In this document: positions 1,157 through 13,176 of the stretch, piece by piece
How positions within the stretch are numbered: the stretch's first letter is position 1
How the letters are laid out: every line of letters starts with the position of its first letter
NCBI RefSeq assembly: GCF_003992135.1
Contig: NZ_RQVN01000005.1
Location: forward strand, 24,001-88,000
Source of the DNA: Veillonella sp. VA142
GTDB taxonomy: Bacteria > Bacillota > Negativicutes > Veillonellales > Veillonellaceae
Direction: 5' to 3'
Length of the DNA stretch: 64,000 bases
Translations under genes and position numbers: made by a program
Notes under the pieces: generated by a model
What the model was told of the DNA's origin: nothing
Databases searched by the model: none
The model's input: the letters and a program-made list of their open reading frames with translations, nothing else

Positions 1157-1176
1157 ATCGTTACTTGTTCTGTTAT

Positions 1177-1322
1177 GTAGCCTGTGGCTGATTAAACTGA
1201 ATATACTAAAAGGAAGAGCACGGTATACTCCTCACAAACGGTATTTCATAATGTTTGTTCGGAGCACACCGTGCTCTTCTGGTGTTTGTGTAACTTAATT
1301 TGTAAAATGCATCACAGGCTAC
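1177..1322 (+). ncRNA. Candidate structured RNA, copy A (closing stem, bubble, terminal hairpin)
   Basis: A 10-bp closing stem (1177-1186 with 1313-1322, GTAGCCTGTG and its exact complement) encloses a large unpaired zone (1187-1212 and 1280-1312). Inside it is a 67-nt terminal hairpin whose base is a perfect 12-bp stem (1213-1224 with 1268-1279), continuing imperfectly through TACTCC/GGAG and CAAAC/GTTTG (1235-1239 with 1253-1257). The same plan, almost the same length, and changed but still complementary stems recur at 2348-2494. The strand is inferred from copy B, which is followed by a U-rich terminator on the plus strand. The outline is like 6S RNA, but that identification is only a suggestion. 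Confidence 0.45.
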
Positions 1323-1374
1323 TACGCTTAACTGCGTTCATCTGTGGAGAAGGATGTATTGCTTGTTCGGAACA

Positions 1375-1424
1375 TGTGGCGCGCTCCTTATGTTACTACG
1401 ACTCAAGTAGTAACGAGTGCCACA
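1375..1424. repeat. Nested hairpin downstream of copy A
   Basis: TGTGGC at 1375-1380 pairs with GCCACA at 1419-1424, a short CTC/GAG extension follows, and an inner 8-bp stem GTTACTAC/GTAGTAAC joins 1392-1399 to 1407-1414 with a 7-nt loop. The bases just before it (TTGTTCGGAACA, about 1363-1374) resemble TTGTTCGGAGCA in the hairpin of copy A, so part of that hairpin may have been duplicated here. Function is unknown. Confidence 0.5.
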
Positions 1425-1480
1425 AGATATGCTATGCATAATGGAGTTCATTTTTTGGGATATAAGTACAATAATATATA

Positions 1481-1527
1481 AAAAGACCAATACAACTTAC
1501 ATCCTTGATGTCTTGTACTGGTCTTTT
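1481..1527. terminator. Bidirectional intrinsic terminator
   Basis: A 15-bp stem (1481-1495 with 1513-1527, one wobble) starts with AAAAGACC and ends with GGTCTTTT, so it has a T-tract on both strands. It sits between the plus-strand transcript ending at 1156 or later and the minus-strand gene ending at 1572. Confidence 0.8.
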
Positions 1528-1571
1528 GTATTTATTTTGGCTTATACATTGGATAGAATCGAAGAAGTATT

Positions 1572-1931
1572 TTATGCGAGGGTTTTATAATACACCCTCG
1601 CTTTTGGATTCGTAATACGTAGTTTTAATGGTTCTTCATCTTGTATGATGTATAACGTATCTTCTTCTAATCCAGTCCATTCTAATGATATGGAAGTTTC
1701 ACCTGTAGTGATACCAAGTGCTTCCAATGGTGGGATATACAGCAGTCGTACTCCTTTGGGTAGGAGTGTACTACTTTTTTTTATGAACTGTAATTGGTCT
1801 CCGTGTTTTGCATAGTCCAATATCTGTGCTAATTCGTTATGATGTTCTTCGTTTATTAAACCATGAACTTGTGCTTGCTCAACATGTACAAAATTTTCAA
1901 TGTCATCACGTTGTAATACAATAAATTTCAT
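1572..1931 (-). CDS. Uncharacterised 119-residue protein
   Basis: I do not recognise this protein. It starts at an ATG with a GGAAAGG ribosome binding site at suitable distance and is read away from the hrcA promoter region. There is no signal peptide or membrane segment. The N-terminal half is rich in charged residues and histidine; the C-terminal half (about residues 60-115) has alternating hydrophobic residues suggesting a small beta-rich domain. Composition and codon use resemble the surrounding genes. It is monocistronic, with the 754-bp structured gap upstream and a bidirectional terminator downstream. Confidence 0.6.
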   Translation of the reverse strand: MKFIVLQRDDIENFVHVEQAQVHGLINEEHHNELAQILDYAKHGDQLQFIKKSSTLLPKGVRLLYIPPLEALGITTGETSISLEWTGLEEDTLYIIQDEEPLKLRITNPKARVYYKTLA

Positions 1932-2107
1932 ATACTACCTTTCCTTTACAGAAATCATTAATCTAAAACAAGATTAAGCTAAGGCCTAGCATCTTACAAA
2001 GCCTAATATCTTAATAGATGCCAATATATAATCGTAATATCATTATACTATCAATTCTATGATGATACAATTTTAAAAGGGAGTATACATCGATTAAATC
2101 TCACACC

Positions 2108-2327
2108 GAGTAGATGCGTTAGTGAGGTATATCTATATAAAGCACTATATAAGAGCTAACGTAGAGAATCACAGCAACGCTCTCCCTCAAACTACCACCA
2201 GATTGGATGTGTAGGTTGAGCATGCCAATTTAGTGCACTATGTAAGAGCTGACGTAGAAGATCAATACAACGCTCGCTCCCAAACTTCCACCCAATTGGA
2301 TGCGTTGATGAGATATGTCATATAAAA
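2108..2327. repeat. Degenerate tandem repeat, period 93 bp
   Basis: Two full units begin at 2142 (GCACTATATAAGAGCTAAC) and 2235 (GCACTATGTAAGAGCTGAC); each later carries a version of ACGCTC, CCACC and ATTGGATG. A partial copy of the unit's tail (AGATGCGTTAGTGAGGTAT) lies at 2111-2129 before the first unit. The units have diverged and I see no shared open frame. In the second unit, TTGAGC (2216-2221), a 17-bp gap and TATGTA (2239-2244) form a promoter-like pair, so the repeat may carry plus-strand start sites. Confidence 0.65.
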
Positions 2328-2347
2328 GGGATACTGTATATTGATGA

Positions 2348-2494
2348 CTTGTATGTCACGGGTTTAGATTAATTATGATATTACTAGAAGAATACGACAT
2401 ACTCCGGAGCAAACCTACCGTAGGATCAGTTTGTGGAGGAGTGTGTCGTATTCTTCCCTTTATAAAATTGATGGTATATATAGTGACATACAAG
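2348..2494 (+). ncRNA. Candidate structured RNA, copy B
   Basis: A perfect 12-bp closing stem (2348-2359 with 2483-2494) encloses a bubble (2360-2386 and 2457-2482) and a 70-nt hairpin. The hairpin starts with a perfect 12-bp stem (2387-2398 with 2445-2456), continues for 7 more pairs with one wobble (2399-2405 with 2438-2444), and has CAAAC/GTTTG inside (2410-2414 with 2429-2433). An outer imperfect stem (2307-2322 with 2516-2531) extends it. The element is the partner of copy A at 1177-1322: same order, same total length within one base, different but complementary stems, and a shared TACTCC...CAAAC...GTTTG...GGAG core. Confidence 0.45.
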
Positions 2495-2535
2495 AGACCA
2501 TAAAGATGTATTTAGTATGACATACCTCACCAAAC

Positions 2536-2561
2536 CAAACAATCAAAAAGTTTGTTTTTTT
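2536..2561 (+). terminator. Weak intrinsic terminator after copy B
   Basis: CAAAC (2536-2540) can pair with GTTTG (2550-2554) and is followed by seven T residues (2555-2561). The stem is only five pairs, so termination may be weak. It would end a plus-strand transcript of copy B before the hrcA promoter. Confidence 0.4.
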
Positions 2562-13002: not shown

Positions 13003-13052
13003 TAGCATATAGTTAATACTGATCTATGCTAGTACGTCACAAAAATAGCATA
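13003..13052. repeat. TAGCATA repeats before the recombinase gene
   Basis: TAGCATA occurs at 13003-13009, inverted as TATGCTA at 13025-13031, and again in direct orientation at 13046-13052. The first pair are 15 bp apart. They could be operator half-sites or arm sites for the recombinase encoded 125 bp downstream, or chance; 7-bp matches in AT-rich DNA are weak evidence. Confidence 0.35.
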
Positions 13053-13080
13053 TTTGCCATTTATTTTGGCCTATGATATA

Positions 13081-13120
13081 ATTACTTCCGATAACGATAT
13101 ATTATCGGAAGTAATTTTTT
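13081..13120. terminator. Intrinsic terminator after pepD
   Basis: A perfect 14-bp stem (13081-13094 with 13102-13115) with a 7-nt loop is followed by a run of T. It ends the HIT-pepD transcript and insulates the recombinase gene. Confidence 0.88.
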
Positions 13121-13176
13121 AGTTTAAAATAGCAATATAGGTACCAATACCTCGATATAGAACATTTGAGGCGCTT

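What the first reader, a model, noticed from the sequence alone, without database searches (positions are those of the whole stretch)
1177..2494. Two paralogous hairpin-in-bubble elements with compensated stems, candidate structured RNA (6S-like outline)
Seen directly: 1177-1322 (146 nt) and 2348-2494 (147 nt) share one plan. Each has a perfect closing stem (10 and 12 bp), a left bubble of 26 or 27 nt, a terminal hairpin of 67 or 70 nt opening with a perfect 12-bp stem, and a right bubble of 33 or 26 nt. Closing and hairpin stems differ in sequence (GTAGCCTGTG versus CTTGTATGTCAC; GAAGAGCACGGT versus GAAGAATACGAC) but both stay complementary, while the inner core TACTCC, CAAAC, GTTTG, GGAG is kept. 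Such covariation points to selection on RNA structure rather than a decaying mobile repeat. Inference: the closing stem/central bubble/terminal stem outline resembles 6S RNA, of which some Firmicutes carry two copies.
Basis: partly seen in the sequence, partly recalled or inferred. Interest (0 to 1): 0.82.

Follow-up and report, generated by a model that had tools for sequence, protein, structure and literature searches.

The report
Swapped hairpins at gene ends
The two "6S-like" elements are two of about a hundred related folded hairpin sequences that sit just after genes in this Veillonella group; they probably help end or protect messages and are exchanged between gene ends, and they are not 6S RNA.

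Summary
The geometry is real. Both elements fold strongly (z about -7 to -9.5) and their stems covary, but they lie on opposite strands. The 6S reading fails: this genome has one genuine 6S RNA elsewhere (G000:C8, E=1.4e-17), and no Rfam family reaches its threshold here.

The elements belong to a dispersed structured repeat family. A covariance model built here finds 93-124 hairpins in each of six genomes of this genus. A sequence search finds none in 23 other genomes of the family.

Typical copies begin just after a stop codon and are co-oriented with that gene (36 of 39 ORF-scored copies in this genome). The hairpin is followed by a U-rich stretch (5.3 T in 9 nt). Orthologous sites are nearly always occupied in all species, both window sites included. 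Yet the hairpin module differs between species at the same site: loop-type agreement is 0.60, against 0.53 for unrelated sites. One clean empty site shows the element exactly after the stop codon.

Best reading: a new REP/bcr1-like family of 3'-end hairpins, terminator-like on the gene strand, whose modules are reshuffled between fixed sites, most simply by ectopic recombination. Function is inferred. No mobilising enzyme was found, and no transcript data were available.

The parts
1157..1212 (+). Left end (LE) of element 1, starting directly after the stop codon of ORF 563-1156; holds the 5' closing arm 1177-1186
   Evidence: same post-stop position in G002-G005
1213..1279 (+). Hairpin module of element 1 (apical loop type A, CAAAC-GGTATTTCATAAT-GTTTG)
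   Evidence: R1 89.1 bits, E 8.6e-23
1280..1340 (+). Right end (RE) of element 1; U-rich start (TGGTGTTTGTG), 3' closing arm 1313-1322, own small hairpin to GCGTTC
1363..1447 (+). Relic of a second hairpin-plus-RE unit (3' half of a B-type hairpin and an RE); the aligned stretch in G003 is similar
   Evidence: inspection of alignment
2387..2456 (-). Hairpin module of element 2 (apical loop type B), opposite orientation to element 1
   Evidence: R1 51.3 bits on -, 34.9 on +
2348..2494 (-). Element 2 with inner closing arms 2348-2359 / 2483-2494; present in this long form in G000, G002 and G005
2295..2543 (-). Outer closing arms of element 2 (2295-2327 / 2511-2543, 76% complementary); G003 and G004 carry the hairpin in this outer stem without the inner arms

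Best explanation
The two elements are members of a genus-restricted family of dispersed, structured 3'-end repeats, comparable to REP and bcr1 repeats. A typical copy is LE (about 55 nt) + hairpin H (67-70 nt) + RE (about 60 nt), starting at the stop codon of the gene upstream and read in the same direction as it. Shown: fold, covariation, position, orientation, conservation at orthologous sites, and exchange of the hairpin module at those sites. Inferred: in the mRNA the H hairpin with its U-rich tail acts as a terminator or 3'-end stabiliser; homologous recombination between the similar ends of dispersed copies (gene conversion, perhaps fed by natural transformation) swaps hairpins as whole units, so that stems change on both arms at once while LE and RE stay recognisably orthologous.
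For: Covariation on 42 A-type hairpins: 16 of 21 pairs changed on both sides, score 0.352 against 0.144 +/- 0.009 shuffled and at most 0.107 slid. Of 196 hairpins, 183 keep at least 12 of 19 Watson-Crick pairs. Co-orientation: 76 of 83 copies with an upstream ORF; 36 of 39 in G000 alone, p=3.6e-8. U-richness after the stem: 5.33/9 on the gene strand, 3.82/9 on the other. Orthologous sites: occupied in nearly all comparisons at 23 loci x up to 5 species. Module exchange: loop concordance 0.60 orthologous against 0.526 non-orthologous, while LE identity is 0.80 against 0.655 and RE 0.73 against 0.65; at L020 LE, RE and the flank agree between G000 and G003 but the hairpin is a different one. Ordinary-looking terminators lie at two sites that lack an intact hairpin, G005 at L019 and G004 at L008.
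Against: No expression data. The hairpin (19-bp interrupted stem, long structured apical loop) passes a simple canonical terminator test in only 1 of 47 copies, and ordinary gene ends passed in only 6 of 24, so that test is weak. At stem positions 4-7 nearly all non-Watson-Crick pairs are A-C on the gene strand (271 against 4 G-T), i.e. G-U on the opposite strand, which could mean the other strand is the folded one. Element 2 and a few copies do not follow a co-oriented gene. The strongly conserved apical loop is not explained by termination alone. Starting from G000 copies biases the occupancy count towards shared sites.
Confidence: 0.6

Rival explanations
1. Non-autonomous transposon (MITE-like) still moved by an unidentified enzyme, with a target preference for gene ends or terminator hairpins; different hairpins at one site are repeated independent insertions.
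For: Empty site in G000 where G002, G004 and G005 carry an element directly after the stop codon. Copies nested inside the apical loop of another copy and arrays of H-RE units. Genus-wide copy number 93-124.
Against: Y1 (IS200/RAYT) transposase absent in 6/6 genomes of the genus, IS110 absent, reverse transcriptase absent in 5/6. No clear target duplication at the empty site. LE and RE stay orthologous while H changes.
Confidence: 0.25
2. The functional folded strand is the one opposite to the gene (an antisense RNA, or a single-stranded DNA hairpin used in recombination, working somewhat like an integron attC site).
For: A-C versus G-T bias at stem positions 4-7, 271 to 4. The - strand of element 1 folds more stably, -60.2 against -55.5 kcal/mol, and element 2 shows the same in its own frame. 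attC sites also lie after stop codons and conserve structure rather than sequence (general knowledge).
Against: Outside positions 4-7 the bias vanishes (55 against 49). U-rich tails are on the gene strand. Several flanking genes are core genes, not cassettes (e.g. gyrA-like at L012, hcp-like at L010, read from their sequence). No integron integrase was looked for.
Confidence: 0.1
3. No function: fold-back template switching and gene conversion keep palindromes perfect, and copies persist by chance.
For: Closing arms can include host coding sequence and its stop codon (L024 in G000 and G001, L040 in G001 and G005), as inverted copying would produce.
Against: Near-universal retention at orthologous sites, strict post-stop position and orientation, replacement by ordinary terminators when absent.
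Confidence: 0.1
4. 6S-like RNA polymerase-binding RNA.
For: Outline only: closing stem, central bubble, terminal stem.
Against: Genuine 6S is a single separate locus in all 13 genomes searched, E 1.4e-17 in G000; no 6S match in the window; about 100 copies.
Confidence: 0.01

Closest known systems
bcr1 and related repeats of the Bacillus cereus group
   Same: Genus- or group-specific dispersed intergenic repeat of about 150 nt with a conserved stem-loop structure and mobile-element characteristics (listed in PMC2267715, citing Okstad 2004)
   Different: No sequence relation is known to me; here strict co-orientation after stop codons, two or more apical-loop types and module exchange at fixed orthologous sites. 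Whether bcr1 shares these was not checked.
REP sequences and BIMEs with RAYT transposases
   Same: Dispersed palindromes near gene 3' ends with proposed roles in termination, mRNA stability and translation (PMC3733652, PMC12306157)
   Different: Longer, no free GTAG/CGTC tag beside a short hairpin, no Y1 transposase in any genome of the genus
Intrinsic (Rho-independent) terminators
   Same: After the stop codon, co-oriented, stable hairpin followed by a U-rich tract
   Different: Long interrupted stem, conserved 23-25 nt apical structure, extra LE and RE hairpins, multi-copy family
6S RNA (RF00013)
   Same: Closing stem, bubble, terminal stem in outline
   Different: Different sequence, length, copy number and location; true 6S found elsewhere

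Membership tests
6S RNA (RF00013) | Match to the 6S covariance model at the gathering score | tested here: not met
   the only genome match is G000:C8:19852-20024
6S RNA (RF00013) | Binding of RNA polymerase, product RNA synthesis | not testable with these tools
   wet experiment
REP/REPIN with RAYT | Y1 tyrosine transposase (PF01797) in the genome | tested here: not met
   0 of 6 genomes of the genus; control genomes ring
REP/REPIN with RAYT | 20-40 nt palindrome tagged at one end by GTAG or CGTC | tested here: not met
   hairpin 67-70 nt; CGTC and GTAG occur in LE only inside pairing regions (definition PMC3733652)
MITE / IS-derived repeat | Terminal inverted repeats and short target duplication around empty sites | tested here: inconclusive
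   imperfect closing arms present; empty site found but no clear duplication
IS110 bridge RNA-type element | IS110 transposase (PF02371) in the genome | tested here: not met
   0 of 15 genomes
Retron / group II intron derivative | Reverse transcriptase (PF00078) in the genome | tested here: not met
   absent in 5 of 6 genomes, one weak match in G004
Dispersed structured repeat (bcr1-like) | Many intergenic copies with one conserved fold, restricted to one group | tested here: met
Intrinsic terminator | Stable hairpin directly followed by a U-rich tract on the transcribed strand | tested here: met
   83% have at least 5 T in 9 nt on the gene strand
Intrinsic terminator | Short uninterrupted stem and small loop by simple canonical criteria | tested here: not met
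   1 of 47 passes

The most novel reading that the evidence does not exclude
A dedicated system keeps docking sites at gene 3' ends and exchanges hairpin cassettes of different loop type between them, so that species differ in which hairpin sits after the same gene; the conserved apical loop would be the recognition site of an unknown protein or recombinase.
Probability: 0.15. Interest if true: 0.78.

Novelty: new variant of a known kind. Interest (0 to 1): 0.5.

Why it matters
About a hundred hairpins per genome in one bacterial genus, most of those examined sitting at gene ends, appear to be interchangeable structured 3' ends from one repeat family. This offers a natural experiment on how mRNA 3' ends evolve, how stems change on both arms at once, and how a repeat can be fixed in place yet shuffled in content. 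It also warns that compensated stems in paralogous copies need not mean a trans-acting RNA.

Tried and rejected
6S RNA: rejected. Other Rfam families: only chance-level hits. Plasmid or phage origin: no match in plasmids, phages or viral contigs. IS200/RAYT, IS110 and reverse-transcriptase mobilisers: not found, or in one genome only. A longer autonomous copy: a shared tail after RE (TTTGCAAACTTGCGC...) occurs in only 14 of 130 RE copies and mostly belongs to repeated small-peptide loci, so it is not the element's end. Strand choice from wobble pairs: contradictory signals. Canonical-terminator statistics: too weak to decide. Literature: no paper found on this repeat in Veillonella.

Full report
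Observation. The window belongs to a Veillonella-related genome (G000, 1.97 Mb, contig C5). Contig lengths identify four relatives: G001 as VA139, G002 as VA137, G004 as 3891 and G005 as 3310. Element 1 lies after ORF 563-1156 and element 2 upstream of hrcA. Element 2 is the same kind of element on the minus strand.

Dispersed family. Copy 1 has about 45 relatives in its own genome and copy 2 about 9. All six genomes of the genus carry 55-83 BLAST matches to a consensus. None of 23 further genomes of the family does. A covariance model of the hairpin finds 93-124 per genome in the genus, two weaker matches in one sister genus (G008, E=6e-6) and one marginal match elsewhere. Plasmid, phage and viral collections gave nothing.

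Anatomy. A typical copy reads TCGTCACTTGTT..GCTATGTAGCCTGTGGCG..AAAGG (LE), a 67-70 nt hairpin, then TTGTGTTTGTGTGATTTAGG..GGAACGCCACAAGGCTACTACGCGTAACTGCGTTCC (RE). The hairpin has a variable outer stem (81 different 12-nt arm starts, partly register shifts), a small internal loop, CAAAC/GTTTG or GAAAC/GTTTC, and an apex of type A, B or rarer types. On 42 aligned A-type hairpins 16 of 21 pairs change on both sides; the covariation score is 0.352 against 0.144 shuffled and at most 0.107 when slid. These rows are related copies, so the count is not one of independent events. An orthologous double change is visible at window site 2: GAATACGAC/GTCGTATTC in G000 against GAATGCGAC/GTCGCATTC in G002.

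Position. Of 83 copies with a nearby upstream ORF, 76 are co-oriented with it, most with the hairpin 40-55 nt after the stop codon; downstream genes are split 35/31. In G000 alone the count is 36 of 39 (p=3.6e-8). This is not explained by replication direction, because downstream genes show no bias. Some closing arms include coding sequence and the stop codon itself (L024, L040).

Fixed sites, exchanged hairpins. Regions downstream of 23 G000 host genes were fetched from up to five relatives. Nearly every site is occupied at the same offset, including both window sites in the four relatives whose contigs reach that far. The first hairpin's loop type agrees between orthologous sites in 60% of pairs, against 53% for unrelated sites, while LE (0.80 against 0.655) and RE (0.73 against 0.65) remain more alike at orthologous sites. 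At window site 1 the hairpin is type A in G000, G002 and G004 but type B in G003 and G005. The simplest account is ectopic gene conversion; active replacement by a dedicated enzyme is not excluded.

Sites without an intact hairpin. G005 at L019 and G004 at L008 carry ordinary-looking terminators. At locus S5 G000 is empty and continues from the stop codon into the flank, while G002, G004 and G005 carry the element directly after the stop. No clear target duplication was seen.

Function. The gene-strand tail is U-rich (5.33 T in 9 nt against 3.82 on the other strand). That, the position, and terminators at sites without an intact hairpin make a 3'-end role likely but not shown. REP sequences offer precedents: they have been proposed to act in termination and mRNA stability, and those within 15 nt of a stop codon reduce translation (PMC3733652, PMC12306157). 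The bias towards A-C mismatches at stem positions 4-7 on the gene strand is unexplained and keeps an opposite-strand role open.

Rejected. 6S RNA is excluded as membership. Known mobilisers searched for were absent or nearly so. I rate the finding as a new variant of a known kind: a structured dispersed repeat family with an unusual positional rule and module exchange.

Noticed in passing
2104-2310: Three imperfect direct repeats (GGATGCGTT-GGTGAGGTATGTC-like) upstream of element 2; they repeat the outer closing arm, like the serial LE remnants seen at other loci.
   Followed up: partly
L050, L045, L088: Repeated loci with short hydrophobic peptide ORFs (e.g. MKKFKNYDRLILILKLLVRLIDWFN) beside a convergent hairpin and a shared promoter-like stretch; they look like type I toxin-antitoxin arrays and are often next to the hairpin elements.
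   Followed up: no
G008 (sister genus): Two matches to the hairpin model at E=6e-6: possible distant relatives outside the genus.
   Followed up: no
2641-2667: CIRCE operator (TTAGCACTC-N9-GAGTGCTAA) before hrcA-grpE-dnaK, 147 nt from element 2.
   Followed up: no
13028-13161, - strand: Marginal Rfam match to a plant microRNA family (MIR480, 35.2 bits against a cut-off of 35), most likely chance.
   Followed up: no
L024 (G000:C29:5438-5493 region): A closing arm reverse-complementary to the last codons and stop codon of a leuB-like gene, in G000 and G001; origin by inverted copying is possible.
   Followed up: partly
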